Shown: in pieces, positions 9,771 through 63,034 of the stretch
Layout: every line of letters begins with the position of its first letter
Numbering within the stretch: the stretch's first letter is position 1
Source: Verrucomicrobiota bacterium
Lineage (GTDB): Bacteria > Verrucomicrobiota > Verrucomicrobiia > Verrucomicrobiales > Akkermansiaceae
Length of the DNA: 64,000 nucleotides
Direction: 5' to 3'
NCBI GenBank assembly: GCA_017301995.1
Contig: JAFLEH010000002.1
Location: 160,839 to 224,838 of the forward strand
Position numbers and translations under genes: made by a program
The notes under the pieces: generated by a model
Told to the model about the DNA's origin: nothing
Seen by the model: only the letters and a program-made list of their open reading frames with translations
The model's database searches: none

Positions 9771-9789
9771 GAATTTGGAAAAGGGATCT

Positions 9790-12144: not shown

Positions 12145-12210
12145 GGCGGCGTGCGCTTTCGGAAACGGAGGTAATCCGGGGTGGTCTTTCAATCCACCGG
12201 CAGTTATCCC

Positions 12211-14906: not shown

Positions 14907-14915
14907 GGGCTGGGG

Positions 14916-17515: not shown

Positions 17516-17560
17516 CGTTGCGGCGGGAAAGGAATTCGTTGGTTCCGGTCTAGTACGCCG

Positions 17561-18529: not shown

Positions 18530-18581
18530 GGGGATGGGATTGGGGATTTGAAATGTCGCATTTGAACTAAATAAGTTTTCG

Positions 18582-20171: not shown

Positions 20172-20182
20172 AAGGGATGGAA

Positions 20183-29332: not shown

Positions 29333-29437
29333 GGGATTGGGGTATTCGACCGGAATGGCGGGTGGAAAATTCACACGGGATCGGACGCGGGCGAAAAAAT
29401 GTTGGGTGAATGAAACGGGAATACCGGGAAACCGCGA

Positions 29438-33652: not shown

Positions 33653-36600
33653 TTACGGTTTGCGGAGGCGGTAGTACGCGCTGCCGGAAGGTGGAGCGGG
33701 ATCGGTGTAGGTCACCATGCCGCTGGAGGTCGCCACCACGGAGCCAACCACGGACCAGGTGGTCATGTCGGTGGTGCGCTGGACTTGATAGGTCCGGCCG
33801 GGAATGCCGCGGAACGACAGACGCACCTTGCCGTCCGGTTGCAGTTCGAGCACCGGCGCGTTGGTTCCAACCCCGGCACCGGGTCTAACGGTCACGGTGA
33901 TGGCACCCGTGACGCTGATGCCGCCGGGATCGCTGATGGTGATAGTGACAGTGTCGGTGCCGGAGAAGCCGGTCGGCGGGGTATAGCGCACCGTGCCGGA
34001 CAGGAGCGCCGCGGTGCCGCCTTGGGCGGTGGCGCCGGTTACCCCAGAAACGGTGAGCGTGTCGCCATCGACATCGGTGGCCGCGGATAGAATCTTGCGC
34101 AGGCTGGCGTCGGTGGCGGTCTCATAGGCGGTGCTGATGGCATATCCCGCGAAGGTGGGAGCCTCGTTGACATTGGTGACGCTGATGGTGAACGCCATTT
34201 CAAAGCCCGCAGCCGGATTGCCGTCGTCGGTTGCCCGGACGCGGATGGCATAACTGCTCTTGGTCTCGAAGTCGGCGACTGGGGTTAGCTTCAGGGTGCT
34301 GCCGTCGAGGGTGAACGAGCCGTTGTCCACATCACCTTCACCGGCGACGAGGCTGAAGGTGTGGGTCTGGCCGGCATCGGCATCCACGGCGCTGAAGGTG
34401 CCGACAGTGGCATTGGCGGCGTTGTTCTCCGCAATGGCCGTGGCGCTGAGCAGGATATTGGTTGGCGCTTCGTTCGCATCGGTGACGGTGACGGTTAGAG
34501 CCTTGGCATAGGTGCCGCCGAGTCCGTCGTCGGCCTGCACGCGCAGACTGTAGGCATTCTTCGTCTCGAAGTCGGCGCTCGGGATGACCGTCAGGTTGGC
34601 GCCGTCGATGGCGAAGGCGGCGTTGTCGGTGTCGCCGTCTCCGCTGACGAGGCTGAAGGTGTGCGCGGCTCCGGCATCCGGATCAATGGCGGTTAGAAAA
34701 CCGACGGTGGCATTGGCGGCGTTGTTTTCCGCGAGCGTGGCCGGTGTGAGCGCGATGTCGGTCGGCGCTTCGTTGGCGTCGAGGATCGTGACGGTTAGGG
34801 TCTTGGCGAATGCACCACCCGCGCCATCGCTGGCCCGGACCCGGAGTTGATAGACGGCTTTGATCTCGAAATCGGCGCTGGCGACGAGTTGGAGACGGTT
34901 GGCGATGATGGCGAAAGCCGCGTTGTCGGCGTCGCCCTCACCCGCGACGAGGGTGAAGCTGTGCGACGATCCGGCATCGGGATCGGCGGCATTCAGGTCG
35001 CCGACGATGGCATAGGGCGCGTTGTTTTCCGTTAGGGTGGCCACTGTGAGCGTGATGTCGGTGGGGGCCTCGTTCACATTGGTGATACTGATGGTCAACT
35101 GCTTGTCCAGGCTGGCCGGAGGAGCGCCACTGTCGGTGGCGCGGATGCGGATGGCGTAGCTGGACTTGGTCTCGAAGTCGGCGCTCGGGATGAGCTTCAG
35201 GGTGGTGCCGTCGATCGTGAACGAATCGTTGTCGGTATCGCCTTCGCCGGTGACAAGGCTGAAGGTGTGGGTAGCTCCGGCATCGGGATCGCCGATTGCG
35301 GTTAGAGAACCGACGGTGGCGTTGGCGGCGTTGTTTTCGGCGATGCTGCTGGCGCTGAGGGCGATGTCGGCCGGCGCTTCATTCACATCGAGGATGGTGA
35401 CGGTCAGCGCTTTGGCGAAGGTGCCGCCCGCGCCGTCGTTGGTCTGCACGCGGAGGCTGTAGGTGCTCTTGGCCTCGAAATTGGCGCCGGAGATGAGCTT
35501 GAGGCTGCTGCCGTCGATGGTGAAGGCCGCGTTATCCGTGTCGCCCGTGCCGGTGACGAGGCTGAAGGCCTGCGTCTGGCCCGCGTCGGCGTCCGTGGCC
35601 GTCAAAGTGCCCACCGTGGCTCCTGGTGCGTTGTTTTCCGCGATGCTGGCCGTGCTGAGCGCGAGGTTCGTCGGCGCGATGTTCGTCGTGGTGATGACAA
35701 AGGTCTGCGCGGCGCTCGAATTCACGCCGCCATTGGCCGTGCCGCCGTCATCCTGCGCCACCACCGTGATGGTGGCCGTGCCGGTGGTCGAACTGGTGGT
35801 GAAGGTGAGCGTGCCCGTGCTGCTGATGGCGGGCTGCACGGAGAAGAGCGCGTTGTTGTTGTTCGTGACATTGAAGCTCACGGTCTGTGCGGATTCGTTC
35901 GGGCCCGGCGAGATGTCGGTGACTGCGGAACTCAAGCTCTGCGTGGTATTGGCGGCGACCGTGAGCGGTGCGGACTTGAGGGCGATGGTGAAGTCGCCTC
36001 CCGCATGCACGCGGCTGACACCGCCGAGCCCTGCGGGGATGTTTTGCTGGCCGCTGCTGTTGGTGCCCCAAACGACCACGGTGCCGTTGCTCTTCACGGC
36101 CACACTGTGTTGGAAGCCTGCGGCGACACCGACCACTCCGGTCAGCCCCGCGGGCACACTGGATTGACCGGCATCATTGCGCTGCCACGCCGCCACGGTT
36201 CCATCGTTTCTGACCGCGAGATTATGATCCCAGGAGCCGGAGGCGATGGCGTTCACGCCGCTCAGGCCGGACGGAATATTGCGCTGCCCCTCATTGTTGG
36301 CGCCCCAGGCCACCAAGGTGCCATCGCTCTTCAAGGCCAGCGCATGGCTTTGTCCGGAAGAAACGGCCACCACACCGGTCAAACCCGCCGGAATGTTGAG
36401 CTGTCCCCAACTGTTGTTGCCCCAGGCCACGACGGTGCCGTCACTCTTGATCGCATAACTGACGACATACCCTGCGGCGATGCCGGTCACATTGTTCAAG
36501 CCCGCCGGGATGTTGCACTGCCCATTGGCATTGCTCCCCCAAGCCATGACGGTGCCGTCACTCTTGAGCGCCAAGCTGTGCGATTGACCAGCGGCAACCG

Positions 36601-39600
36601 CCACCACGCCGCTGAGCCCTGCGGGAACATTGCACTGGGTGTCACCGTTGTAGCCCCAGGCCGCCACGGTTCCATCCGTCTTGACTGCCAGCGCATGATA
36701 GAAGCCTGCCGCGGCCGTTTTCACCTGTCCCAAGCCTGCCGGCACAGTGCTCTGACCATAGGCATTGTGACCCCAGGCGACCACTTCGTAACTGGACCCG
36801 ATCAGCACGGTGCTATTGGCGGTGAAGCTCGGCGCGTCATTCACGCCGGTGATGTCGATGGTGAAGGTGGTGGTGCTGGTGTCCACGCCGCCACTGGCGG
36901 TGCCGCCGCTGTCCTGGGCGACGACGGTGACGGTGGCACTGCCGAAGGCATTGGCTGCCGGGGTGAAGGTGAGCGTGCCGCTGATGTTGATGGCGGGCTG
37001 GGCGCTGAAGAGGGCGTTGTTATTGTTCGTCACCGTGTAGCCCACGAGCGTCTGCGCGGACTCGCTGGCGGGTCCGGGTGAGAAGGTGGCAAAACTGGCC
37101 GCAGAGTAGGCTCCGGAGTCCTCCAGGCGTGTCACGGTGCTCTGCGCGAAGGTGACACTCGGCGGATTGTTCACCGGCGTGATGGTGATGCGGAAGGTTT
37201 GCGCCGCGCTGGTGTCCGCACCGCCATTGGCGACGCCGCCGTTGTCCTGCGCGACGACGGTGACCGTGGCGGTGCCACCAGCGGTCGGAGAGGGCGTGTA
37301 GGACAGCGTGCCCGTGCTGCTGATGGCCGGCTGCACGGTGAAGAGCGCGGTGTTGTCGTTCGTGACGGTGAAGCTGACCGTCTGCGATGACTCATTGGCC
37401 GGACCCGTCGAGATGCTGGTGGCGAAAGCGCTGGATGACTGGGCACCCGCGTTTGCCGCAGCCGTGAGCGTATAGGGCGTGAAGGATCCCGAAGTGTAAA
37501 TCTGGCCATTGGCGACGACAGCCACCAGCTTGCCGCCATCGGCGGAGGAGGCGATGGAACTCCAGTCGCGGTTAGTATCGCGTGCCGTCCAGCTCACCCC
37601 CGAGTCGGTCGAGGTGTAGATTTGTCCGTTGGACACGACCGCAGCGAGCTTGCTGCCGTCGGATGAAGAGGCGACGCCCCACCAGTTGCGACTGCTTTCA
37701 CGCGCCGTCCAGGTCACGCCGGAGTCAGTGGAGGTATAGATTTGGCCACCACGCACGGCGGCGACCAGCTTGGTGCCATCCGCGGAGCAGGCGATGTCCT
37801 GCCAGGTGCGGGCGCTTTCGCGTGCGGTCCAGCTCACGCCGGAGTCCGTCGAGGTGTGAATCTGGCCGGTATATTCTGCGGCGACGAGTTTCGTGCCATC
37901 GGTCGATGAGGCCAGCGCATACCAGTTCCGGTTGTTTTCGCGGGCGGTCCAGTTCACGCCGGAATCCGTCGAGGTGTAAATCTGGCCGCTGCGCACGAAG
38001 GCGGCGAGTTTGGTGCCATCGGCAGATGAGACGACATTCGCCCAGTTGCGGACGTTTTCACGGGCGGTCCAGGTGACACCAGAGTCCGTGGACGTATGAA
38101 CGCGTCCGCCATAGTTACTCACCACCAGCTTGGTGCCATCGGCCGAAGAGGCGATGTAGGATCCGTTGACAGACAAGGAACGCTGCACCCAGGTGGCCCC
38201 GGAATCTGTCGAGGTGAAGAGCAGTGAACCTGTCACCGCAGCGAGCTTGGTGCCGTCGGACGAGGAGGTGACCATGCGCCAATCCCGATTGGAATCCCGC
38301 GCCGTCCACGTGGGTCCCGCCGGGATGCTCGTGCCTGCTGGCACCGCAAAACTCGGCGCGTCATTCACGCTGGTGATGGCGATGGTGAAGGTGGTGGTGC
38401 TGGTGTCCACGCCGCCGTTGGCGGTGCCGCCGCTGTCCTGGGTCACGACGCTGACGGTCGCCGTGCCAAAGGCATTCGCGGCAGGTGTGAAGGTGAGCGT
38501 GCCGCTGGTGTTGATGGCGGGCTGGGCGCTGAAGAGGCTGTTGTTGTTGTTCGTCACCGTGTAGCCGACGAGCGTCTGCGCGAACTCGCTGGCGGGTCCG
38601 GGCGAGAAGGTGGCAAAACTGGCCGCGGAGTAGGCTCCGGAGTCCTCCAAACGGGTCACGGTGTTTTGCGCTAAGGTGACCACGGGCGGATTGTTTGGCT
38701 GGATGATGTTGATCTGGAAGGTTTGCGCCGCGCTGGTGTCCATACCGCCATTGGCGGTGCCGCCATTGTCCTGGGCCACCACGGTGACCGTGGCGGTGCC
38801 GCCTGCCGTGGGAGACGGGGTGAAGGTGAGCGTGCCGTTGCTGCTGATGGTTGGCTGGACGCTAAAGAGCGCGTTGTTGGTGTTGGTGACGTTGAAGCCG
38901 ACCGTTTGCGCGGACTCATTCTCCGGGCCGGGGGAGATGCTGGTGGCGAAGGCCGGCAAGCTGTTCGCGCCAGAGTTGGCCCCGACGGTAATGCTCGATG
39001 GACTGCTTGAATCGAGCGTGATTGTTGTCCCGCCTTGCGCCAAAGCTGCGACCTGAGCGGGAGTGAGAACCGAGTTGTAAAGCCGGATCTGGTCCACGAA
39101 CCCAGACGCATTTTCTCCCCCATCATCACGGAAGAAGTGGAGAATGCCGCCAGACGCGGAGGCCACGTAGTGATTGTTAGTGTCGGTGATCTGACCCTTC
39201 TGCACTCCATCCACATAAGCTGTGGTGACCTTGGTGGTGGCATTCCGGGTCATCACCACCCGATGCGTCTGCCCGGCGTTCATGTCCACCGTGGTGGAAT
39301 TCCCACCGTCAAACGGATAAGGGTAGAAAAAGGCTTTTCCACTATTGCAGTAAAACGCCGGATCAGCCGTCAGTCCATTGAAGTTGATCAGGTTGCGGTA
39401 GCCGCTGGTCTCATTGAACCGGACAAGCATTTCGATCGAGTATTCTGCCGTGTTGGCGAGTGCATTGCTCACATTGGGGCCTTGGCCGGCCCCAAACGTA
39501 TAGCCTGTGGCTCCGAGAGAGCCTCCGTTCGGGACCATGGCAGGTCCACCCAGACTGTCGGTATAACTGCCATTGAATTCATACACACGACTGGCGCCTG

Positions 39601-42600
39601 CCCCATACGCAAAAAGAGTGTTGGGCGCATTTGATCCATTGGGTGAAGTCACGATCACAGAGACCCCAGCATTAATTCCCGCTGGAGTGACGCAGGTGAT
39701 GGACGTTGGGCTGGAAACCACGACATTGGTCGCTGCAACGCCACCAAACGTCACTCCGGTAGTCCCGGTGAAACCACTCCCTGTGATGGTCACGGTTGTT
39801 CCGCCTGCTGTCGTGCCGTTGTTAGGTGAAATTGAGGTGATCGCCGGGCTGGTGAACGAAAAGCCCGGCGCATCATTCACGCTGGTGATGGCGATGGTGA
39901 AGGTGGTGGTGCTGGTGTCCACGCCGCCGTTGGCGGTGCCGCCGCTGTCCTGGGTCACGACGCTGACGGTCGCCGTGCCAAAGGCATTGGCCGCCGGCGT
40001 GAAGGTGAGTGTGCCGCTGGTGTTGATGGCGGGCTGGACGCTGAAGAGGCTGTTGTTGTCGTTCGTCACCGTGTAGCCGAGCAGCGTCTGCGCGGACTCG
40101 CTGGCCGGTCCGGGCGAGAAGGTGGCAAAGCTGGCCGCGGAGTAGGCTCCGGAGTCCTCCAGGCGTGTCACCGTGCTCTGAGCGAGCGTGACCACGGGCG
40201 GATTGTTCACCGGGGTGATGGTGATCTGGAAGATCTGGCCCACGCTGGTGTCCACGCCGCCATTGGCGGTGCCGCCATTGTCCTGGACCACCACGGTGAC
40301 GGTTGCGGTGCCGCTCGCGGTCGGAGAAGGCGTGTAGGTCAGGGTGCCATCAGCGCTGATCGTCGGCTGCACGGTGAAGAGCGCGTTGTTGTTGTTCGTG
40401 ACGCTCACGCTAACCGTCTGCCCGGATTCATTGGCGGAACCGGGCGCGACGCCTGTAAACAACGAGGACACCGACTGCGCACCGGCATTGGCCGCGGTGC
40501 TGATGGAGTACAGGTTCAACGGTGTGGATGTGAAGAGCAGGCCGTTACCCACGGCCGCGAGCTTGGTGCCGTCCGCCGAGGAGGCGAAAGCACCCCAGTA
40601 GCGATTGGTTTGACGCGCGTTCCAAGTGGCTCCGAAGTTGGTGGAGGTTTGAATCAGGCCACCCCAATCGCTCGCGACAATTTTCGAACCGTCCGCCGAA
40701 CAGGCCACGGCGGTGTAGTCGGGGCTGGTGTCGATAGTGGTCCAGTTCACGCCTGAGTCCGAGGAGATGCAAAGCCGACCCTGGCTCGAATTCGAATACT
40801 GACCGGTTACGCCTGCTGAAATGATTTTGGTTCCGTCCGCAGAGCAGGCCACGCCGCGCAAATAAAAGCCGAGGTTTGCATGCTCGCGACGGGTCCAATT
40901 CGCTCCGCCGTCCGTGGAAGTGTAAAGGCCTCCACCATCCGAGGTGGCAACGAGCTTCAAGCCGTCGGCCGAGGATGCGACGCCCATCCACGGCCCGATT
41001 ATGCGGATTGTCCAAGTGGCACCGGAATCCGTGGAGGTGTAGATATAGCCATAGTTGGAGCAGGCGACAAGCCTGGTACCGTCGGCCGATGAGGCGACAT
41101 CACGCCACACATTGTTGTTACCCCGGTCCGTCCAGGTGAAGCCAGAGTCGGTGGAGGTGAAGATATTGCCACCGTAGCGGACAGCGACGAGCTTTGTACC
41201 GTCGGCGCTGGATGCCAAGCCAATGATGTTGGCCTGGGCGAAGCGTTGCGTCCAGGTGGCACCGGAATCCGTGGAGGTGTAGATGTTCGCACCTTCGGCG
41301 GCGACGAGCTTGGTGCCGTCTGCGGAGGAGGCGATATCGCGCCAATCCGTTTTCGTGCCCCGCAGGGTCCAGATGGCACCTGGGTTGCTGTCCGTGGCGC
41401 GGTAACGCAGGGAGTGAGAGATGTTCGAACTCGAGCCAGACGCGATGTAGGTCACTCCGCGCAGCCCCAAGGGAGGCGCTGCCGGTCCGGCCGCATTGTA
41501 TCCCCAGACAACCACAGTGCCGTCACTTTTGAGTGCCAGACTGTGGTCTCTACCCGCCGCGATCGCGGTGACCCCGGTGAGGCCGCCAGGCACCGTGGCC
41601 TGACCGTTCGCATTCTGCCCCCAAGCCACGACCGTGCCGTCGCTCTTGAGCGCCAGGTTGTGATAACCGCCCGCTGCAATGGCCGTCACACCGGTCAAGC
41701 CGCCAGGGATGTTGATTTGCCCTTGGCCATTTAGACCCCATGCCACGACCGTTCCGTCACTCTTGAGTGCCAGACTGTGGTTGGCACCGGCACTAATCGC
41801 GATCACATTGCTCAGCCCGGCAGGAACATTGCACTGCCCGTTATCATTGTATCCCCACGCGGCGACCGTGCCGTTGGTGCGGAGCGCCAAGACATGATAG
41901 GCGCCTGCGGCGATGGCTGTGGCATTCAAGCCTGCGGGGACATTGGCCTGGCCATTGTCACTTTTCCCCCAGACGAACACCGTACCATCGGCCGTGAGTG
42001 CGAGACTTTGCCCCTCGCCTGCCGCGACCGCGGTGACCCTCAAATCGCCAAGGCCAGAGGGCACATTGAGCTGGCCATAATTGTTGCCTCCCCAGGCTAC
42101 AACGGTGCCGTCCTCCTTCAGCGCCAGAGAATGATTGTTTCCGGCGGAGAGAGCCTTCGCCCCCGTCAAGTCCGTGGGAGGAGGACTTACGCCAATCCCC
42201 CAGGAACCAAGATCCAGGTGGGTCGTGCCGGTCTGTGCTCCGGGAGCCACCGTACCGTTCAGCGCAAAGACGGGCGCGTCATTCACGCTGGTCAGGTTGA
42301 TGGTGAAGGTGGTGGTGCCGGTGTCCACGCCGCCATTGGCGGTGCCGCCGTTGTCCTGCGCGGTGACGCTGACCGTGGCCGTGCCAAAGGCATCCGCCGC
42401 AGGGGTGAAGGTGAGTGTGCCCGTGCCGCTGATGGCGGGCTGGACGCTGAACAGGGCGTTGTTGTTGTTCGTGACCGTGAAGCCGCCGACCTGGGTCTGC
42501 GTGTACTCGCGGAGATGACCCGGAGTGAAAGTGGCAAAGCCCGTCGCGGTGTAAGCCGGGGAGTCCTCCCGCAAGGTGACCGCGCTCTGGGCCAGGGTGA

Positions 42601-51600: not shown

Positions 51601-54600
51601 GTCCGGTGCTAACCGCGACTGGCATGCTGCGGCTCTGCGTCGTGCCGTCGCCGAGCTGACCGTCGCTGTTTTTACCCCACGCGACGAGTGTGCCATCGTA
51701 GCAGACCGCCAGCGTGTGATTGCCACCTGCCGCGATCATTTTCACCCGGCGTTCGTCGCCGCCGTAGAGGGCGCTTTGTGCCACATCGCGTTTCACTTCG
51801 ATGGGCATGTGAAGCAGCGTGTCATTGTCGATTGGCGCGCCCAGCGAGTTGTAGGTCGTGACAAAACCGCGGCCGAGTTCGCCATTCTCATTGTAGCCCC
51901 AGACCATGACGCGGCCCTCGGTCGTGAGCGCGACGCTGTGGTGGGCGCCTGCGGCGATGAAGGCGGTTTTTTTGCCGGCCAGACCGCTGCCTGCGCCGGT
52001 GGGAACCGGCACGGGCGTGGTGGTGGTGTTGCCACTCTGGGCAAAGTAGGCATTCACATCACTTTCGGTTTGCCACGCCGACACGATGCCATCGGCAGAC
52101 AGGGAGAGGTTGTGGTTCCTGCCACGGGCGAGCTGCACCACATTGCCGGTGGCGAGGCCGACGGGCAGCTTTTGGCCATCGCCCCAGCGCCATAGGCTCT
52201 TGTCACGCCAAACCAGCGCGAGGTCATTGCCATCACCGCCATAGTAGGAGACGGTGTAGTTGTAGCTTTTGCCTCCACGGCTCAGCGTGATCTCCGCGCC
52301 GTCCGGATAGATCCCAAATCGGCCCTCGATGGGCGAGGTGCCCGTGTTGCGAATCACCAGGATGTCCTCGCCCGCGATCGGGTCAAAGTCGAGCGTCGGG
52401 GTAAAGTGCGGCCCGACGGTGACGGCTGGCAGCGTCAGCGGCGGCTGGTTGTGGCCTGTTAGGTTCACCACCAGCGTGTCGATCTCCGTGCTGAAGGTGC
52501 CGACGCTGGAATAGGTGGTCACCGTCGCCGCCGGATTGTTAGGATGCGCGGTGATCAGATAACCGGCGAAGGAATAGGTGGTGCCGCTCTGCAAGCCCTC
52601 CGCGGTCACCGTGAAAGCACCGGCGGTGGTGCCTGCGGCGATGGTTTTGGTCACGCCGGTCTCACCGATGCTCGGTGTCGAATCGTCCGAGGTTTTGGAA
52701 ACGACCACGCCTCGTTCGAGAATGGTCGCGCCCGCATCCAGCACGGTGGCACCGAGGACCGCGTGGTCCGCGCGGGCGATTTGCACGATGGGGTCCGTCA
52801 CGGAAGGCGAAGCCGAAACGATCGCGGCGGAATGGCCCGCCGATCCGCCACTCGTCAGTTGGAGAATGGCTCCGCTGCTCAGCGGGCCGCTGGTGCTAAC
52901 GAGTGCGGGGGAAAGGCGTATGTTAGTCGTGCCATCGCCCACCTGACCTTCATCATTCAGGCCCCAGGCTAGCGCGGCATCATCATCCCGCAGGGCGATG
53001 CTGTGGAATTCGCCCGCCGCAAGACTCTTGATGGTCCGGCCATTCAGCACACCGGCAGTACTCACGGCCACGGGCAGGGATTGATCATCCGCCGTGCCAT
53101 CGCCTAACTGCCCGAAGGCATTGCCGCCCCAGGCAGCCACCGTGCCATCGGCGCACAGCGCGAGGCTGTGCTCGCCACCTGCGGCGAGAGATTGGATGGT
53201 TTTGCCTGCCAGGGCGCTGCTCGCCCCCCGGTTCACCAGCACCGGAACCAAGCGGTTCGTGCGCAAATTATCCCCCAACTGGCCCTTCGTGTTGTCGCCC
53301 CAGGCGACCAGCGTGCCGTCGCTGCAAAGCGCCAGCGCATGATTCTTTCCGGCGGCCATGGCGACGACCTTTTTGCCTGTCAACGCCCCGGAATCGATCA
53401 CCGACGCGCTGCCACCCAAGGTGAGCCAGGCAGGATCCCAAGAAATCAGGGCACCATCGGAGCACAGCGCCAGCGCCTGATCGCCACCCGCCGCCACGGC
53501 AATGATCCGGCGGCCTTGGAACGGCGCTTGATTGTTGTTGATGCTGATGCCGGACTCCTGGTTCGCACCCCAGAAGAACAAGGTTCCATCCTCGGTAAGC
53601 GCCATGTTGCGGGTATAACCGGCCGCGATGGCGACGATGCGATGCCCGTCCGTCAGGGTTAAGCTCGGCACCGGAGTGACGAGAACGGGCTGGGTGGTGA
53701 AGGCGGGTGGGTTGCCAGGTTGCGAATAGTAGAGCTGGTGTGCCGAATTATCGCCCCAAGCTGCTACCGAACCGTCAGAACAAAGCGCCAGTGTATGCCG
53801 GCCTCCACGAGCCACCTGCACGACGGTTTTGCCAAACAAAACGCCGCTTTGCCGCACGGCGGCGGGCAGCAGTTGGGACTGCTGGTTGCCGGTGCCGACT
53901 TGTCCATACGGATTGCCACCCCATGCGGCCAAAGCCGTGTCCCGCCACCGCAGCACGAGGTCGTTGCCGCCTTCGCCGCCGTAATACGAGACGATGTAGT
54001 GATAGTCGCGTCCGCCGAAGGTGAAATCCAGGTTCGCGCCGTGGGCGAGGTTGGTGAAGCGGCCTTCGATCGGCTGCAGGCCGCGATTGCGGATCAGCGT
54101 GATGTCCGCAGGCTTCAAAACAACCGTGCCGAGGGTCAGCGTGGCGGTGCTGCCCGCCGCAATCGATACGGATGGCGCATCGATGGTGTAGGCTGTAAAA
54201 TGATCGCTTTGCGTCCAGTTGGCGGAGATGTTGTCAAACTGGGTGAAGAAGCTCGCGGTCTCGGAATACGCGGCGCCATCGTCGGTGACGACATAGGCGG
54301 CGAAGGAGTAGCCGGTATGGGGCTGCAGATTGATGACACCGGTGGTGAAGGCGCCCGTGCCGCCACTGGCAGTTAGATCCAACACATTGGCCTCGCCCAG
54401 CGTGGGAGTGGCGTCATCGGTCGTTTTGGCCAGCACCAGGCCACGCGCCAAAACGGTCTTGCCGCCGTCGGAGAGCACCGTGCCGCCCAGAGTGGCCGTG
54501 GTGGGCGTGACAGCCGAAAACACCGGCAACGCGGCAACGGGGCTCGGTCCGCCAAGGACGCCCGAATGCAGCGAAGTCGAGCCGTGGGCGACGGAAGTGA

Positions 54601-57600
54601 TCGAGACGCCCGCCAGAGCGGTCGTGCGGCTGACTTCCAGCGGAATCGTGCTGGTGTTGGCTCGGCCCAGTTCACCGTAGGTGTTGTTTCCCCAAGAAAG
54701 CAGCTTTCCATCCAAACGCAGCGCCATGCTGTGGCCCTGGCCGGCCGAGATGGACGCCACGGTGTCGAGGCCGATGTCCACGGGGGAGTAGCTGGGTGTC
54801 GTGGTGCCGTTGCCGAGTTGGCCTTCGAGGTTCCGGCCCCAGGTGAGCACGCGATTGCCGAGTGCCAGCGCCATGCTGTGCTCACCGCCTGCGGAGATCG
54901 CCGTGTAGATGCCAGCGAGCGTGACTGGCTTGTGCTCAAGATTGTGATCCACTTCTCCGATGCCGAGCTGGCCCGCCGTGTGGTCACCCCATGCGAAAAG
55001 GGTGCCATCCGTGGCCAGCGCGAGGTTGTGATTCCGGCCCGCAGACACCGTCTTGATTTTTTTGCCGTTGAATGAGGATGCGGGAATCAGGTAGGCCGTG
55101 TTGAAGCCCGTCACATCGCTGCCCGCACCCAACTGACCGAGCGAATTGTCACCCCAGGTTGCCACCGAACCGTCGGCGCACACCACCATGCTGTGAGCGC
55201 GTCCCGCCGAGATGCCGGTCACTCTTTTGCCGAACAGACCGGTGCCGTTGACCACACTGACAGTCACCGGGCTGCTGCTGTCCGTGGTGCTGTCATTGCC
55301 CAACTGGCCGCCGGCATTGGCACCCCATGCTTTGAGTTGTCCATTGGCCAGCAGCGCCAGACTGTGATTCTCGCCCGCCGCGACCGCCACCACGCCTGAT
55401 ATGCCCGCAACAGTCACCGGAGTGCCGCGATCCGTCGTCGTGCCGTCGCCGAGTTGGCCCAGGTGATTTCTGCCCCAGGCCACCACTTGTCCATTAGATA
55501 GCAGGATCAGGCTGTGTTGCCCGCCGCGTGCCATCTGCACCGCCGTGGGTCGGCCTTCCGCGTCCGATTGATCGTAGGCGAGGACCGCTTCGCTCAAAAC
55601 AGCCGCGCCGGGGCCTGCCTGACCGTGGGAGTTGTTCCCCCAGCCAAAGGCGTCCGTGCCTTTCCACAGCAGCACCAGATCATTGCCATCGCCGCCGTAA
55701 TACCACGCCACATAGTCGTAGGTTTTCCCGCCGACGGTTAGGCTCACCGTGGAACCGTGCGCCACATTGCCGAAAGTGCCCGCGATGGGATTGAGGCCGG
55801 TGTTGTTGATGACCGTGAAGTTCCGCCCGGCCTCCGGCGTCCGGCTCAGGCTCAAATTGAGGCTGGCTCCGGATGCGATGCTCACCTCCGGCAGCGTCAA
55901 GGTCGTGAAATAATCGCCGGTGAAGCTGTGGCTCGACACCGCGGTGACAAAAGTGCCGTAGGGGCTGTAGCTCTCGCCCGCCGCATTCTCCGCCATCGCC
56001 ACACAGGCATAAACGGTGGCCGGTTGGAGGCCGGTGACCGCCGTCCAGAACTGCGGCGAGGGATAAAACACATTGGTTTGCGCGGGCAGATCGATCACGC
56101 CGATTTCGCCCTGCACGGGATCCGGATTCGTGGCCGCCAGCGAGACGAGGAAACGCTTGGCCGTGACCGCAAGTCCGCCGTCATCCGCGACGCGTGCCGC
56201 CAGTTCCGCGCCATTCGGGCTGGTGGTTTCCGCCGTGGGCGCAGCATCAAAACGAGGCTTGCCGGACGGGCTGGTGAAGGTGCCGAACTCCGAATAAACC
56301 GTGCCCGTGTTCGTAGTCACATAGCCCGCATACGAATAGCTCGTGTTCGCATCGAGATCGGTCCAAACCAGCGTGCCATTGGCTCCGGCGCTCGTTTTGA
56401 TCCTGACATTGAAGCCATCCACCTCATCCAGCAGCGGACGCGCATCCACCGAGGTCTTCGCCAGCACGATGCCGTGTTCCAGGATGTCGCTGCGGCCCGG
56501 CAGATCGAGACTGACCGTTAGAGAAACGCTGCCGTAGCTCAGAGGTGTCACCACCACCGGCCGGGCGAGCGCAGGCACGGCGCTGAGGATGGCCGAGTGC
56601 TGCGCAAAGGCTCCCTGCGCCAGTCCTGCGGCCCACGCGCCGTCCTGACGATTGAAAACACTGGGTTCCGGGGTCAACGGCCCCGCACCGGTGTTGAGAT
56701 AGACGGGCTGCGCTTTGTCCACCAGCGTGCCATCGCCCAACTGGCCGACATTGTTCGCTCCCCACGATGCGACTGTGCCATCGGAAAACCGCGCCTGGCT
56801 GAATCCGGCACCCGCGGCCACTTCGACGACCCTTTTGGGCTGACCTTGCGCCGTTGTATTGTTAGATAAGCTGCTCACCAGCGTCGGCGAGGCTCCGCCA
56901 CTGCCAAAACCCCATGTGACCACCTGCGCATCCTGTGTGAGCGCCACGACATGGTTGCGGCCTGCGGCGATGGATTTCACCCAGCGATCCCGCAGCGCAC
57001 TGCCGGTGCCACGGTTCACCGCGAGCGGGAGCGACTGGAGACCCGTCACCGCCGAGCCAAGCTGTCCGTTGGCACTGCTGCCCCAGGCCGCCACATTGCC
57101 ATCCGCGCACACCGCGAGGCTGAAACCGGCGCCTGCGGCCACCGCCGTCACTTTCCGGCCCGCGAGCGCACTGCCTGCGGTGGTGCGCACGGCCACCGGG
57201 AGCGATGAACTGCCGGTCGTCACATTGCGCGGCGGACCGTCTCCCAGGCCCAACTGGCCGGAACCATTGCTGCCCCAGCTCACCACGCTGCCATCGGAGC
57301 AAAGTGCCAGGCTGTGATTCTCACCCGCTGCGAGTGACAGCACCGTCTTGCCATTCAAAGCACTGCTTGTGCCGGTGGAAACCTGGGTGGCGTAGGTGCG
57401 GGCGGTCTGCGTGCCGTCTCCCAACTGACCATTCTCGTTAGCGCCCCATGCCCAGACCTTGTTGTCCGATGTCAGGGCCAGATTGTGCGTATAACCCGCC
57501 GCCACCGCTATGACATTTTCGAGCGGTGCATTCGCGCCCTTCATCACTTGCACCGGCACGCCACCGCTGCCTGCCGGATTGCCCAGCGGTCCGCTGCCCC

Positions 57601-60600
57601 AGGCGAAAAGTTTGCCATCGGAACACAGCGCGAGTGTGTGCGTCCCGCCGCGTGCGACCTGCACCACCGTCTTCGTCGCCAGTGCGCCGGTGAAGGTCAC
57701 CAGCGCCGGTTTGTTCACGCTGGCAGGCGTGGGGAAGCCCAGTTGCGCGCTCGCATTGCCACCCCACACCGCCGTCAGCAGTTGGCGCGGACGCAGCACC
57801 AGGTCATTGCCGTCGCCACCGTAATACCACGCGACAAACGGGAAGCTCTTGTTGTCGCGTTGCAAGGTCACTTCCTGGCCATTCAGCAGGCTGCCGTGCG
57901 GTGTGTTGTTAGCGAAACCGGGCGCACGATTTTCGATCACCACGAGGTCCGTCCCCGCTTGTGGCGGGTTTTGCAGCGCCAGCGACCACGGCGCCGGCCC
58001 GGTCGAACCCGCTGGGCTGTCCTGATAAATGGCTGCTTGGCCGGAGTTGGCGGCAAACAAGGTCGAGTTCATGACCGCCGGCCCGGTTTTAAAGGTCCGG
58101 TAGCCGGAGTAGTGCGTGCGGCCGTTGGCGGTCTTCGCATAGGCCGCGTAAGTATAGCCATCGCCCTCGACGAGCCCGGTGGCATCCAGCGGAAAGCCGA
58201 AAGGAATCGCCGGAATGCTCTGCGTGACCGCCAGCGTGGTCACATCGGCTCCTCCCACGGTCGGACGCGAGTTGAGGCTCGTTCTCGACAGGACCACGCC
58301 ATATTCCGTTAGGATAAGTCCTGCGGCAAAATCGACCTCGGCGGCCACCCGGGCCGTGGTGGTGCCGATGCGGATGTTCTCAGGGCTTTTGAAGATCACA
58401 TTCGGCGCGAGCACCAAAGCGGAACGATGCGCCGTGCAGCCGGCGGACAGTTTGGAGACGATGCCATTGCCCAGCACATCATTGGCACTGTTCGCCACAA
58501 GGACGGGCGTCGCGCGGTCGGTCGTGCTGCCATCACCGAGCTGGTTCACATCATTTCGACCCCAAGCGGCCACCGTGCCATCGGAGCACAGCGCCAGGCT
58601 GTGTTCCGCGCCTGCCGCCACACTCTGCACCGTCTTGCCGCCGAGTGTTTCTGAGGTGGAAACCAGTCGCGGTACCGTGCTGTTGCCGCCGCTGCTGCCG
58701 AGCTGGCCTTTCGCATTGTCACCCCAAGCCACTGCTTTGCCGTCGGCACGGATACCGACCGTGTGGGCGATGCCGGCCGCTACCGAAACCAGTCGCGTGC
58801 TCCAACCGCTCACCGCGCTGCCATCCTGGGTCGAGACCGCCACCGGTCGTGAACGGTCCGTGGTGGACGCATCTCCGAGCTGTCCTTTCTCGTTCGCCCC
58901 CCAGGCCGCGGCCGTGCCATCGGAGCAAAGCGCGACGCTGTGATAGGCTCCCGCGCAAACGCTCACGACGACCTTGTCCGTGAGCGCGCTGCCCGCAGCG
59001 GTGTCCACCGCCACCGGACTTAGGCTGGAGCTGGTTGTGCCGTCACCCAACTGGCCTTTCGAGTTGTCGCCCCAGGAGAAGACCGTGCCGTCCGCGCAGA
59101 GAGCAAGGAAATGGTACCCGCCTGCCGCCAGTGACACCACCGTCTTGCCATCCAGCGCGCTGCCTGCGCCATTGATCACCGTCGGTGCCCAGTCGTTCGA
59201 GGTTCCGCCCCAAGTTACCACGGTGCCATCGAGGCAAAGCGCGGCGTTTTGTGTGGCAGATGCCGCGACCGCCACCACCACCCTGCCGCCGAGCACGCTG
59301 CCGCCATCGCGCAGCACATCCACCGGTACGCCGACCTCTGCCGCTTGTCCGAGATTCGTGGGATTGCCCAGTTGACCGTGGAAATTTGATCCCCACGCGG
59401 CGATGGTGCCATCCGCACACAGCGCCAGCGTGTGATGTTCGCCGCGTGCCACCTGGATCACCGTGCGGCCCTGGAGCACGCCCAGGTTCTCCAGTCCGAA
59501 TGGCAGCGTAGTCGGAGACGGATCGCCGTTTTCTAACATCAAGCCATCATTGGCGCCCCATGTCACCGCGGAGGTGCCGTACCATTGCAGCACGAAATCC
59601 TTGCCGCTGTCCCCGCCACGATACGACGCCACATAGCGATAGATTCTGCCGCCGAAGGACATCGTCACGATGTCACCATGCAGCACATTGGCGAAGGTGC
59701 CCTGGATCAGGCTCGCCCCGTTGTTGCGGATCACGGTTAGATCCCTGCCCACCGCCGGTGCGGCCGTTATGGAGAGGCTCAGGACCGCTCCGGGCGTAAT
59801 GACCGCATCCGTGTCCATCACCGTCGCGGGAATTTCACCCGAATCAAAATCTCCCTGGCTCCAGGTGACATTCATGCTAGGAATCTGCGTGCTGAAAACG
59901 CGGATCTTGTCGGTGTAGGTCACGCCATTGACATTCCGCGCGTAGGCCCGATAAACATAGGTTGTGCCGCGTTTCAGATTCACCGCCTTGATGGTGAAGA
60001 CGCCCGGATAGGGCAGATCGGGCTCCACGCCGCCGGGGATGTCCACATGGTAACTCACCACTCCCGACTGGCCGATTTCCAAAGGCACCTCCAGTGGCGG
60101 CGCTTCATCGGTGAACTCGTTGGCCGTGCCGTCGGATCCGCGTTTCAGCGGGCGCATCGTCTTCAGTTCCGCCACCACCACCCCGCGGCGGGTGATATTG
60201 GATCGGCCGTTGAAGGTGATGTTGCCGCCGAGGGTGGCTTCCGTGGTCTTCACCGCCGTGTGGGTGGGCGCGGAGATGTCCGGCAGGCGGGAGGTTAGGA
60301 ATGTCCCGGCCGGCAAAGTGATGCTGTCCCGTGCCGTGGTGCCGGTCTCATAGGGCACAAAGGTGGTCGTGGGCGTGGTGAACACCGTGCCGAAGTCATG
60401 GATGTTGCCATTCGGCATCGCGGCGTTCCGGGCATACACCGTGTAGGAATACCAGGTGTTCAGGCTCAGGTCGGTCGCCTGGGTCGAAAAAGTTCCCGTG
60501 GTGAGCGCGGAGGGATTGGTGCTGGAGGAATCATGATTGTCGGGATCATCCAGCCGCGGATCGGCATTTTCCGCCGTTTTCGCCCACACCATGCCGCGTT

Positions 60601-63034
60601 TCGTGATCGCCGTGCCGCCGTCCGTGGCCACCGTGCCCTGCAAGGTGTAATGGAAACCGCTGACCTCCTGCTGGGTCGCCTGATGCACCTTCGGCGGCGG
60701 CACCAGCAGCAGCGAGGAATGCGATGAAGTGCTCCCGGAGGAAAGTTTGCGGGCGTCACCCGCATTCCAGGCTCCGGCGGCCGATTTGCGCACCACCGTG
60801 GCATACAGCGCATCGGCATTCGGCACCGGAGGGCTCTCGGTGGTGACCACCACCGGCTTCGTGCGGTTCGCCGCGGTGCCGCTGATGCCCAGCTCGCCAT
60901 TTTTGTTCAGTCCCCAGGAAACAACCGTGCCGTCGGAGCACAACGCCAGACTGTGCGCGGCCCCCGCATCCACCGCCACCACCGTCTTGCCATTCAGCGC
61001 GCTTCCCGAAAGGGTTTCGACCGTGATCGGATAAATCGCGTTTTGTGTGGTGCCATTGCCTAACTGCCCGTTGCCGTTGCCACCCCAGGCCGCGAGCGTG
61101 CCGTCCGTGCATAGCGCCAGCGTGTGTTTGCCGCCTGCGGAGATGGATTGCACGGTTTTGCCAAACAGCGCGCTGCCAGCCAGTTGATTCACGGCCTTCG
61201 GATAACGGTTGTTCACCCCCACCGCGACGCCGAGCACCGTCTTGATGATCTTCTGCGCCAGCGGGATCGAGTTGTCCTTGTGCCCGTATTGCAGGGAACT
61301 GTTGTCCCCCCAGGCCGCCAGCGTGCCGTCCGAGCACAGCGCCACATTGTGGTCTCCGCCTGCAGAGATCGCCATGACGATCTTGTTTCTCAGCGCCGTG
61401 TCATAAGCGACATTCGGATAGGTGATGTCCACGCCAGGCATGAAGACCAGGGCGATGTTCGTGGCCGCTTGCAGGTCGATGTAGCGCTCCACCACTTCCA
61501 GATCGTCCGCCGTCACCGTGTCTCCGGAAAACAGATTGATGACGATGGGGACGACGCGGGTCGCCTCGGACAGCGCCTCCTCGGAAAGCGCGGTGATGAT
61601 TGCTTCCTTGAGGGTGTCCACTTTCACCGTCTGGAGCAGTTTGGCGACCCGGTCCGTGTCCGAGGTCACGCGGCCATCAGCCGAATCGGCAGGCATCAAG
61701 CCCTGCTGGATCGCGTAGCTCACGATGAATTCCTCGACCAGCGGCCCGAGCAGGTTGTTCGCGGTCTCCAGCTTCTTGCCGTCGGAGTTCGCCTTGTCCG
61801 CCGCCTGTTGCAGTTTTTGGTCAATCAGCGGCGACAGGGTGCTGTCCATCGCCGCGCTCACCGCCTCGCGGATCAAAGGCAGCGCCACCTCCCGCGCCGT
61901 ATTCTCGGCCACGGGCAGCAGAGCCTCTAGCAAAACGGGCCGCGCGATGCCGCGAAACAGGTCCTGTGCGATCTCGGTGAAAAAACTGGTCGCCTCGACC
62001 CGCATGCCCCGTCGGTTATAGATGTCCGCAGCCAGAACAGGCACCTTCGAGAAGGCGATGTCGCTGTTATCACCCAGTTGATGCAGCTCATTGGTCCCCC
62101 ATACCGCCACTTTGCCCTCGGAGGTCAGCGCCAGGCTGTGCTTGTCGCCCGCGGCAACCGCCACCACCGTTTTGCCTGCCAGAACACCCGCAGTGCTCAC
62201 GGCTACCGGAGCCGCCGAGGAGGTGAGCGAATCATTGCCCAACTGGCCCTTGTTGTTATTCCCCCAGGCCACCACCGAGCCGTCGGAGCACAACGCCAGG
62301 CTGTGCGCGGCACCCGCCGCCACCTGGATCACCGTTTTGCCCGCAAGCGCGCCACCACTCACCCGCACCGGCCGGTTGCGCGCCGTGTAGCTGCCATCGC
62401 CAAGTTGTCCGGAGGCGTTTCCTCCCCATGCCACCACCGTGCCATCGGTGCACAGCGCGAGCGAGTGCGCACCGCCTTGGGCCACTTGCACCACGGTCTT
62501 GCCCGCCAGCAGGCCGGATTGCACTGGCGGCGCCAGCCCGTCAACCCACACCGGCTTGCGGCGCAGGTCGGACGACTTATCGCCGAGCTGGCCGGAAGCG
62601 TTGGCTCCCCAGCCCGTCGGCACCAGGTCCTTCCACAGCAGCACCAGGTCATTGTTGCCCTCGCCGCCGTAATACCACGCCGCATAGCGGTAGGTGAAGC
62701 CGCCGAAGGTCAGATTCACATCGGAGCCGTTCGCCACATTGCCGAAGCTGCCGCTGATGAAACTCCGACCCGTGTTTTTCACGATCATCAGGTCGGCACC
62801 CGGAACCGGCGCGTAATTCAGGGAAATATCAAGGCTTCCGGCAGCGGTGTAGCCTGCCGCCTCGATCGGCACATCGGTGGCTGAGTCGAGGACCGCGGTG
62901 GTAGTCGCCACCGCAGGCAAGCCAGCCATTGCGGTCATCACCAATAGTACCCGGAGCCACGCCGGACACCGAAGTGTTTGCCGACCGGTGGCCGAACATT
63001 CGGACGAGGCCGATGTGGAGACGGGCGTATTCAT
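33653..63034 (-). CDS. Giant secreted multi-beta-propeller protein (9793 aa): RCC1, BNR/YCF48-like, Kelch, cadherin-like, IPT and LamG modules
   Basis: A single uninterrupted frame. The N-terminus has a long polar leader and a hydrophobic signal core ([17 protein letters not shown]). Counting motif copies in the translation gives 15 propellers, each of seven blades: 11 RCC1-type (WGxNxxGQLG or WGxNxxGQxN), three BNR/YCF48-like ([10 protein letters not shown], then [10 protein letters not shown]) and one Kelch. Nucleotide order from the N-terminus: seven leader + RCC1 + Fn3-like super-repeats (62910-49195, the last without an Fn3); cadherin-like/IPT (49190-47470); Kelch (47460-46340); RCC1 (46335-45515); IPT/cadherin/Ig-like; RCC1 and BNR (44650-42915); Ig-like; RCC1 and BNR (42235-40530); Ig-like; IPT; LamG-like (39600-39040); Ig-like; BNR (38330-37485); Ig-like; RCC1 (36800-35960); Ig-like and five cadherin-like repeats (35950-34170); C-terminal domain. 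Probably an envelope-exposed adhesin or matrix protein; function unknown. Confidence 0.85.
34170..35680 (-). repeat. Five tandem cadherin-like repeats
   Basis: Units of about 300-312 bases encode [20 protein letters not shown] then TVGxLxAxDPDAGxTHTFSL, [16 protein letters not shown] and [10 protein letters not shown]. The DNA motif for AENNA recurs near 34413, 34713, 35013, 35325 and 35630. The calcium-binding DxNE-like ends are present, so the array is probably a stiff extracellular stalk near the C-terminus. Confidence 0.85.
38361..39988 (-). repeat. 116-base identical direct repeat inside Ig-like modules
   Basis: Bases 38361-38476 and 39873-39988 are identical over all 116 positions. Related but diverged copies begin near 36831 and 42275. 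They encode the same Ig-like unit ([20 protein letters not shown] and following). The feature spans from the first to the second identical copy. Confidence 0.85.
39040..39600 (-). other. LamG/concanavalin-like module within the giant gene
   Basis: This non-repeated stretch encodes [20 protein letters not shown], then [40 protein letters not shown] and [20 protein letters not shown]. This is the LamG-like jelly-roll pattern of secreted carbohydrate-binding modules. Confidence 0.75.
42915..43785 (-). repeat. First BNR/YCF48-like propeller, seven blades
   Basis: Seven copies of a ~40-residue unit, [15 protein letters not shown] then [14 protein letters not shown]. The Asp-box SxDxGxTW is clear. 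Sister propellers with seven copies each lie at 40530-41385 and 37485-38330. Confidence 0.85.
45515..46335 (-). repeat. Eighth RCC1 propeller, short-blade type
   Basis: Seven ~39-residue blades of the form [21 protein letters not shown], then NNxDGQxNVPGGL. The DNA period is about 117 bases. The other propellers of this short-blade type lie at 43800-44650, 41395-42235 and 35960-36800, each also with seven blades. Confidence 0.85.
46340..47460 (-). repeat. Kelch-type propeller with seven blades
   Basis: Seven double-glycine blades can be counted: LFAGG, LAAGG, FMMGG, LVLGG, LVVGG, LIAGG and LAVGG, with [12 protein letters not shown]-type linkers. It lies between an IPT domain and the eighth RCC1 propeller. 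Confidence 0.85.
49195..62910 (-). repeat. Seven tandem super-repeats: leader module + seven-bladed RCC1 propeller + Fn3-like module
   Basis: Approximate starts of the units on the minus strand are 62910, 59880, 58085, 55930, 54235, 52495 and 50690, about 1.5-3.1 kb each. Each begins with an ~80-residue leader (LTVIRNTG, then GTFxNVxHG, then [13 protein letters not shown]). It continues with seven RCC1 blades of the [15 protein letters not shown] type and, in units 1-6, ends with an Fn3-like module ([11 protein letters not shown] and YSFAGYxxT). Units 1 and 3 carry two Fn3-like modules. Unit 1 also has a helical insertion at about 62030-61400. Boundaries are good to about 30 bases. Confidence 0.8.

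What the first reader, a model, noticed from the sequence alone, without database searches (positions are those of the whole stretch)
33653..63034. One polypeptide with 15 beta-propellers, every one of seven blades
Motif counting in the translation gives seven blades in each of 11 RCC1-type, three BNR/YCF48-like and one Kelch propeller: about 105 blades in 9793 residues. Three unrelated blade families all kept at seven suggests selection for closed propellers rather than drifting repeat number. I know no described protein with this composition. It is probably a very long surface fibre with many binding faces.
Basis: partly seen in the sequence, partly recalled or inferred. Interest (0 to 1): 0.9.

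Follow-up and report, generated by a model that had tools for sequence, protein, structure and literature searches.

The report
Giant fifteen-propeller protein with surface partner
A bacterium encodes one enormous, probably exported protein built from fifteen seven-bladed propeller domains, followed by a small gene of a membrane-sorted type, which suggests a giant binding fibre held at the cell surface.

Summary
The minus-strand frame 33653-63034 encodes 9793 aa (about 993 kDa) with 11 RCC1, 3 Asp-box/BNR and 1 Kelch propellers, each of seven blades. Models of three of the fifteen match closed seven-bladed solved structures. Seven is, however, the usual number for RCC1, and whole propellers were duplicated, so the fifteen sevens are about four independent counts. 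The last four RCC1 propellers resemble beta-lactamase inhibitor BLIP-II, but its aromatic binding face is mostly absent.

Large proteins with many RCC1 propellers recur in relatives and in named Verrucomicrobiota (up to 12 or more propellers). Among 39 examined only this one also has BNR and Kelch runs. Exceptions to seven exist: one five-bladed propeller and two unbroken fourteen-blade runs.

New here: the protein ends in a C-terminal tag shared by many large proteins, and a 234-aa P-domain/PEP-CTERM gene starts 26 bp downstream. This partner family follows tagged genes at 22 of 23 testable places, though 12 of these were the seeds and only 5 of the other 10 are complete partners. Best reading: an exported multi-face binding fibre whose tag works with an exosortase-sorted partner. 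Export, anchoring and ligands are inferred, not shown.

The parts
62903..63034 (-). N-terminal signal-peptide-like segment (residues 1-44)
   Evidence: basic stretch then [15 protein letters not shown]; among the top hydropathy windows of the protein; no signal-peptide predictor was run
62612..62902 (-). first of seven copies of a ~95-residue linker that precedes each A-type propeller ([17 protein letters not shown]-type motif)
   Evidence: alignment A1; no Pfam match; matches in 32 of 59 genomes, own included
60680..62617 (-). A1: RCC1 propeller, residues 140-785, split by an insert
61400..62002 (-). ~200-residue insert within A1 (residues 345-545), helical by my reading; no Pfam family over cut-off
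58400..59587 (-). A2: RCC1 propeller, residues 1150-1545
56570..57787 (-). A3: RCC1 propeller, residues 1750-2155
54539..55663 (-). A4: RCC1 propeller, residues 2458-2832; modelled, matches HERC2 RLD2
52811..53947 (-). A5: RCC1 propeller, residues 3030-3408
51026..52213 (-). A6: RCC1 propeller, residues 3608-4003
49193..50428 (-). A7: RCC1 propeller, residues 4203-4614
47483..49192 (-). cadherin and TIG/IPT domains, residues 4615-5184
46355..47482 (-). Kelch propeller, seven repeats, residues 5185-5560
45509..46327 (-). B1: BLIP-II-like RCC1 propeller with ~39-residue blades, residues 5570-5842
44642..45508 (-). TIG, cadherin-like and Big_9 domains, residues 5843-6131
43799..44641 (-). B2: BLIP-II-like propeller, residues 6132-6412; modelled
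42920..43792 (-). N1: Asp-box/BNR propeller, seven blades, residues 6415-6705; modelled
42218..42919 (-). X1: repeated linker, residues 6706-6939 (tandem-95-type repeats lie in this half of the protein)
41399..42217 (-). B3: BLIP-II-like propeller, residues 6940-7212
40517..41398 (-). N2: Asp-box/BNR propeller, residues 7213-7506
39608..40516 (-). X2: repeated linker plus TIG-like segment, residues 7507-7809
39029..39607 (-). LamG_3 / concanavalin-like domain, residues 7810-8002
38333..39028 (-). X3: repeated linker, residues 8003-8234, 81% identical to X2 and to X4 in the aligned parts
37484..38332 (-). N3: Asp-box/BNR propeller, residues 8235-8517
36800..37483 (-). X4: repeated linker, residues 8518-8745
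35975..36799 (-). B4: BLIP-II-like propeller, residues 8746-9020
33947..35974 (-). stalk of cadherin and Big_9 repeats, residues 9021-9696
33656..33946 (-). C-terminal tag (GIPGRxYxVQRS...PPGSAFYRL type), residues 9697-9793, found at the end of many large proteins
32922..33626 (-). partner gene, 234 aa: signal peptide by reading, P-domain, PEP-CTERM tail; starts 26 bp after the giant's stop

Best explanation
The gene makes an exported protein of about 1 MDa. Its N-terminal half is seven RCC1 propellers strung on small linkers. Its C-terminal half mixes BLIP-II-like, Asp-box and Kelch propellers with cadherin, TIG and LamG domains. The propellers are closed rigid rings. Each RCC1 ring presents a face lined by two hypervariable residues per blade (G-x-x-H), so the protein offers many different binding sites for proteins or glycans of other cells, surfaces or matrix. 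It ends in a C-terminal tag. The next gene makes a small P-domain protein with a PEP-CTERM tail, which exosortase would cut and sort to the outer surface. I propose that the tag and this partner act together to retain or place the giant at the cell surface. Shown here: the domains, the blade numbers, the modelled fold of three propellers, the variable positions, and the recurring gene pair. Inferred: export, surface location, tag-partner contact, and binding function.
For: Domains and blades. Models that match closed seven-bladed structures. In 321 aligned blade cores of nine own-genome proteins the two residues between G and H are the most variable columns (3.5 and 3.4 bits against 0.6 for G and 1.4 for H); they rank first and second in five of the six subsets shown and first and third in C29_3508. 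Partner: a profile of 12 P-domain/PEP-CTERM proteins finds 26 places in 15 of 59 genomes. Three lie too near a contig end to test. Of the other 23, 19 have a tag match on the same strand within 200 bp upstream and 3 within 489-1234 bp, 1 has none in its ~200 bp of upstream sequence. Twelve of the 22 are the profile's own rows, found because they follow tags, and so circular. Of the 10 others, 5 are complete partners with a PEP tail (3 direct, 2 near; in one of these, C13, the tag-bearing frame itself ends at 88567, shortly before the partner), 4 match the P-domain part only inside longer frames without a PEP tail in the sequence read (all 4 direct), and 1 is a broken frame (near). An independent Pfam P-domain search of the own genome gives four small-frame P-domain genes over the cut-off (C12, C13, C17, C64), all four beside tagged genes. 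The own genome has two exosortase genes.
Against: No ligand, localisation or expression data. The tag often occurs without the partner: of 20 further tagged places read downstream, 10 have the partner 18-46 bp on, 1 is followed by a second tagged gene that has it, and 9 have none of this kind; tag matches occur in 46 of 59 genomes, partner matches in 15. One complete partner (G058:C97) has no tag in its ~200 bp of upstream sequence. The partner also follows non-propeller giants, so it says nothing about propellers. Most of the RCC1 proteins of this genome (C7, C29, C4, C56, C17_7326, C17_2613) have no such gene among the next frames read. Variable loop residues are expected in any propeller. 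The giant itself lacks a PEP-CTERM tail, and no secretion system was identified for it.
Confidence: 0.47

Rival explanations
1. A released extracellular-matrix or flocculation protein: the giant is secreted into exopolysaccharide together with the PEP-CTERM partner and is not anchored to its own cell.
For: PEP-CTERM proteins were proposed to enter extracellular material (PMC1569441, passages read); two partner rows weakly match a flocculation-associated PEP-CTERM model, best E 0.006.
Against: A recurring pairing of the C-terminal tag with an exosortase substrate suggests placement at the envelope rather than free release; this is an inference.
Confidence: 0.24
2. The propellers are mainly stiff spacers. 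The repeated rings lengthen a stalk and the faces carry no specific function.
For: Whole-propeller duplication explains the constant blade number without function; propeller number varies widely among relatives.
Against: Variability is concentrated at the two face positions while the scaffold is kept.
Confidence: 0.16
3. The B propellers inhibit beta-lactamases or cell-wall enzymes as BLIP-II does.
For: B1 and B4 match BLIP-II at 6.7e-51 and 4.2e-49; the B2 model is 48% identical over 263 aligned residues.
Against: At the x-x positions BLIP-II has an aromatic residue in 6 of 7 blades (letters; that these contact the enzyme is recalled, no call); 8 of 25 aligned B blades have one.
Confidence: 0.05
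4. Misassembly or pseudogene.
For: The genome is a 65-contig assembly and the gene is repetitive.
Against: Frame open throughout, GC3 0.72-0.84 all along, longest exact direct repeat 116 bp; similar giants in other genomes.
Confidence: 0.03

Closest known systems
RCC1-like domain (RLD) propellers such as RCC1, HERC2 RLD2, RPGR, UVR8
   Same: Seven-bladed closed fold, Pfam RCC1 repeats far over cut-off, last blade closed by the two chain ends
   Different: Bacterial, exported-type, eleven in one chain, joined by lineage-specific linkers. Many RCC1-type genes in one bacterium are known (15 in Haliangium ochraceum, PMC3035250, passages read)
BLIP-II, beta-lactamase inhibitory protein II
   Same: Short ~39-residue blades, seven blades, 48% identity in the structural alignment of B2
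   Different: Aromatic residues at the x-x positions mostly absent; embedded in a giant protein
Asp-box/BNR propellers: GH74 xyloglucanase, Ycf48, sortilin
   Same: Profile of N1-N3 finds them at 8.5e-13, 1.4e-07 and 3.5e-05
   Different: No catalytic domain recognised; three copies spaced along one chain
Kelch propellers (KEAP1-like and kelch-like proteins, designed SAKe6)
   Same: Kelch_1 five stretches over cut-off; phmmer best 8.6e-28, a designed Kelch protein
   Different: Seven repeats here; that KEAP1 and SAKe6 have six is recalled
Huge bacterial surface proteins and giant genes of the PVC superphylum
   Same: Size, cadherin/Big_9 content (PMC11573180 and PMC12057145, passages read)
   Different: The main text of PMC11573180 holds neither 'RCC1', 'propeller' nor 'Kelch', that of PMC12057145 no 'RCC1' (term counts)
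PEP-CTERM/exosortase system
   Same: Partner gene carries a PEP-CTERM tail just over the Pfam cut-off and the genome has exosortases
   Different: The giant is not itself a PEP-CTERM protein; 'P-domain' does not occur in the main text of the founding paper PMC1569441

Membership tests
RCC1 propeller superfamily (propellers A1-A7, B1-B4) | RCC1 repeats over the curated cut-off | tested here: met
   PF00415 343-404 bits in the three segments holding A1-A7; PF13540 202.9 bits for B1; B2-B4 not given to Pfam separately, but matched by the own profiles
RCC1 propeller superfamily (propellers A1-A7, B1-B4) | closed seven-bladed fold | tested here: met
   models of A4 and B2 only, 2 of 11
BLIP-II | sequence and fold similarity | tested here: met
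   B1 and B4 by sequence, B2 by model
BLIP-II | aromatic face at the G-x-x-H positions | tested here: not met
   8 of 25 B blades against 6 of 7 in BLIP-II
BLIP-II | inhibition of class A beta-lactamases | not testable with these tools
   needs an assay
Asp-box/BNR propeller (N1-N3) | Asp boxes, about one per blade, closed ring | tested here: met
   TSTDSG-type boxes at 18 of 21 blades; seven blades each; N1 model ring-shaped, the other two not modelled. Single Pfam BNR models are below cut-off, Sortilin-Vps10 over cut-off in all three
Kelch propeller | Kelch repeats over cut-off, closed ring | tested here: inconclusive
   repeats met, seven by own profile; closure not modelled
PEP-CTERM protein (partner 32922-33626) | C-terminal PEP motif, hydrophobic segment, basic end | tested here: met
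   PF07589 20.8 bits against 20.7; 6 of the 12 aligned partners match at 0.01
PEP-CTERM protein (the giant) | C-terminal PEP motif | tested here: not met
   ends in AYYRLRKP; no PEP-CTERM model among its NCBIfam matches
Type IX secretion cargo (the giant) | C-terminal type IX sorting domain | tested here: inconclusive
   no NCBIfam sorting-domain match at 0.01

The most novel reading that the evidence does not exclude
The C-terminal tag plus the P-domain/PEP-CTERM partner is an undescribed two-gene surface-attachment system of Verrucomicrobiota-like bacteria. Giant exoproteins of unrelated architecture (RCC1-propeller, beta-helix-like and others) carry the same C-terminal receiver, and an exosortase-processed P-domain protein encoded immediately downstream docks it at the outer surface. 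The fifteen-propeller protein is the most elaborate cargo seen.
Probability: 0.35. Interest if true: 0.8.

Novelty: new variant of a known kind. Interest (0 to 1): 0.6.

Why it matters
It gives a natural set of giant proteins in which RCC1-type rings were copied many times inside one chain, with rare misses (5, 14), so the question of how propellers keep their blade number can be tested within one gene family. The tag and partner give a concrete, testable handle on how very large exported proteins of a poorly studied phylum might be held at the surface. If the faces bind, the scaffold is a ready-made library of rings with two variable residues per blade.

Tried and rejected
Selection inferred from fifteen independent sevens: rejected as stated, because propellers were duplicated whole. 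Pure blade-by-blade amplification: not supported either in the window protein, where within-propeller similarity is not higher than same-position similarity between propellers. Catalytic role for the BNR propellers: no support found. BLIP-II-like inhibition: strong sequence match, face not kept. Misassembly: judged unlikely. Further downstream genes as part of the system: a 783-aa BNR_2 protein, a 3063-aa TPR protein and MoxR/VWA genes follow, no link found. A first blade-similarity run was noisy and was replaced. A first entropy script was wrong and crashed; one search replaces both. A link of the partner to RCC1 giants only was dropped: it follows the tag, not the propellers.

Papers. Listings only: most; one search found none. 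Opened: PMC9218822 (sections 12 and 18, passages), PMC6121496, PMC11573180, PMC12057145, PMC1569441, PMC3035250, PMC3482391 and PMC3192720 (passages only). None of what I saw describes multi-propeller RCC1 giants in bacteria or a P-domain/PEP-CTERM pair; the library lacks most subscription papers and preprints.

Limits: the rule for 'seven' accepts a weak leading half-blade, and 9 of the 13 flagged groups were called seven by my reading. The own-genome RCC1 list scored 150 of 424 first-look candidates, so nine proteins is a lower bound. BNR and Kelch profiles were built from the window's own blades, so distant ones in relatives may be missed. Only 45 of 51 own-genome propeller groups, and six blades of each, entered; one search used the same filter. 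L056 and L057 are near-identical and not independent. One of the 12 proteins picked (in L093) had no P-domain and was dropped before alignment A8; 11 of the 12 rows of A8 match the Pfam P-domain at 0.01. Three P-domain matches below the cut-off in the own genome (C9, C12:346388, C39) were not examined.
Full report
WHAT IS THERE. The window's minus strand holds one frame of 9793 codons (33653-63034), about 993 kDa, pI 5.0. It starts with a signal-peptide-like segment. Then come seven units of linker, RCC1 propeller and Fn3-like piece (fn3 below the Pfam cut-off) over residues 45-4614, cadherin and TIG domains, a Kelch propeller, and a second part in which BLIP-II-like RCC1 propellers (B1-B4) and Asp-box/BNR propellers (N1-N3) alternate with cadherin/Big-type linkers and one LamG domain. 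A cadherin stalk and a C-terminal tag end it.

BLADE NUMBER. Own profiles for the two halves of an RCC1 blade give six or seven H halves in each of the 11 RCC1 propellers; the seventh blade is made of the first W half and a last, often degenerate H half (missed halves read by eye). BNR: 21 motifs, 7 per propeller (own profile 7, 7, 7). Kelch: 7. AlphaFold models of B2+N1 and of the A4 unit have mean pLDDT 82.5 and 79.1. They align with BLIP-II (Z 36.6), with the seven-bladed WRAP-T and tied WD40 rings (Z 29.5) and with HERC2 RLD2 (Z 49.9). Twelve of the 15 propellers were not modelled.

IS SEVEN SPECIAL? The own genome has at least nine proteins with RCC1 repeats. With relatives and named genomes, 39 proteins with four or more H halves were listed (9 own, 18 from the relatives' stretches fetched, 12 from the 11 named loci), and 152 complete RCC1 groups were counted (six groups cut by contig ends left out). 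The script gave seven for 139. I read the other 13: nine are seven, two are unbroken runs of 14 (C7_4245 and C56_1054 of the own genome), one is five (first propeller of G035C278), and one is cut short by a stop near a contig end. Seven is a strong rule, not an absolute one. The sevens are not independent. Blades at equal positions of different propellers are more alike than permuted ones for BNR (0.519 against a null mean of 0.431; 0 of 5000), A-type (6 of 5000) and B-type (42 of 5000), and for two of six paralogues tested (C7_4245 and C17_7326, 0 of 5000 each), while C17_5884 (1142), C17_2613 (1558), C29_3508 (1669) and C4_1425 (4276) show nothing. Whole rings were therefore copied in this gene. 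Pereira and Lupas (PMC9218822; sections 12 and 18 and passages read) state that lineages mostly keep a preferred blade number without a counting system, which covers this case.

RELATIVES. The A-type linker profile matches 32 of 59 genomes searched, own included. Large examples: 8360+ aa with 12 complete RCC1 propellers and a thirteenth cut by the contig end (G028C464) and 7218 aa with 11, one of them five-bladed (G035C278). Of the 39 proteins only the window's has BNR or Kelch runs by the same profiles. A B+N tandem profile matches B-type or N-type parts singly in relatives; in the rows listed no relative has one match covering both.

FACE POSITIONS. In 321 aligned blade cores from the nine own-genome proteins, the pair between G and H is the most variable (3.5 and 3.4 bits; G 0.6, H 1.4). 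The two positions rank first and second in five of the six subsets shown, and first and third in C29_3508. In BLIP-II the same pairs read YF, NY, AW, VY, IF, EW, PN (letters); that they form the inhibitor's contact face is recalled, not from a call. Of the 25 aligned B blades 8 have an aromatic residue there. Hence: BLIP-II relatives in fold and sequence, not evidently inhibitors.

THE DOWNSTREAM GENE. A 234-aa gene starts 26 bp after the giant's stop: signal peptide by reading, P-domain (PF01483 29.0 bits, cut-off 21), PEP-CTERM (20.8 bits, cut-off 20.7). The giant's last ~100 residues match 20 places in the own genome, itself included. Of the 17 places other than this gene and the two on C17, 15 end within 18 residues of a stop; in two (C13, C34) the frame runs on. 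The same kind of downstream gene follows C17_1533; it was not seen among the next frames of C7, C29, C4, C56, C17_7326 and C17_2613, and C17_5884 is followed by C17_1533. Reading downstream of 20 further tagged places, 10 have a P-domain/PEP-CTERM gene starting 18-46 bp on, 1 (C64a) is followed by a second tagged gene that has it, and 9 have none of this kind, one of them (G019C665) with a different PEP-CTERM protein 333 bp on.

HOW TIGHT IS THE PAIR? A profile of 12 partners finds 26 places in 15 of 59 genomes at 1e-15. Three lie at contig ends (G011:C1, G019:C482, G019:C381). One complete partner, G058:C97, has about 200 bp upstream and no tag there. Of the other 22, 19 have a tag match within 200 bp on the same strand and 3 at 489, 720 and 1234 bp (tag profile). 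Twelve of the 22 are the seeds. Of the 10 unseeded, five are complete partners of 208-243 residues from the match start with a PEP tail: G028:C889, G025:C8 and G035:C193 directly, G035:C119 and C13 at a distance, the tag-bearing frame of C13 ending at 88567. Four (C23, G055, G052, G009:C2) match only the P-domain part in longer frames without a PEP tail in what I read, all directly after a tag. One (G035:C136) is a broken frame. The independent Pfam search of the own genome gives four small-frame P-domain genes over the cut-off (C12, C13, C17, C64), all beside tagged genes; the other matches over the cut-off are in frames of 1116-1640 aa on C19 and C31 and were not tied to the tag. Tagged proteins with the partner include RCC1 proteins (here, C17_1533, G025:C8) and giants of 6115 and 7501 aa without propellers, beta-helix-like by my reading. 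Two exosortase genes are present. The partner profile matches no solved structure at 0.01, and the tag profile's only match below 0.01 (4.9e-05) covers its cadherin-like first half.

MECHANISM. Shown: domain order, blade number, three modelled folds, variable positions, recurring gene pair. Inferred: Sec export, exosortase processing of the partner, docking of the tag on the partner, and binding of outside ligands by the rings. I give 0.47 to the whole.

NOVELTY. Each part belongs to a known family or is a repeat of this group. The combination in one chain, the recurrence of multi-ring RCC1 giants, and the tag/partner pair were not found in the searches of the held library. Multiple RCC1-type genes per genome are known from myxobacteria (PMC3035250, passages).

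Noticed in passing
L016 (own genome C56:137640-140801) and L009 (C7_4245 residues 3313-4114): Two paralogues carry an unbroken run of 14 RCC1 blades with no linker: two rings of seven back to back, or a larger ring.
   Followed up: partly
L033/L032 (G035C278 protein, residues ~143-410): An RCC1 propeller with only five blades at the start of a 7218-aa relative: an exception to seven.
   Followed up: partly
window 61400-62002: About 200 residues, helical by reading, inserted between blades 3 and 4 of the first propeller; best Pfam hit DUF7375 at 0.0042, below its cut-off.
   Followed up: partly
own genome C17:43139-115060 (L010-L013): Four RCC1 proteins (1533, 5884, 7326, 2613 aa) lie within ~72 kb of one contig, same strand.
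   Followed up: no
window 62612-62902 and relatives: A ~95-residue linker ([13 protein letters not shown]-type motif) precedes A-type propellers across the group and has no Pfam match.
   Followed up: partly
window 12399-29374: A 3063-aa TPR-repeat protein (20183-29374) beside MoxR/BatA/VWA genes (12399-18655).
   Followed up: no
window 8529-12192: A GH5 cellulase-like and a GH127 beta-L-arabinofuranosidase-like gene next to each other, a plant-polysaccharide hint for the lifestyle.
   Followed up: no
G009:C11 and G009:C13 (L114-L116): Two giants of 6115 and 7501 aa without propellers carry the same C-terminal tag and are followed by the P-domain/PEP-CTERM partner.
   Followed up: partly
L103, L108, L109, L111 (own C23; G055:C134; G052:C154; G009:C2): P-domain-like stretches directly after a tagged gene but inside longer frames without a PEP tail: perhaps a fused or alternative form of the partner.
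   Followed up: no
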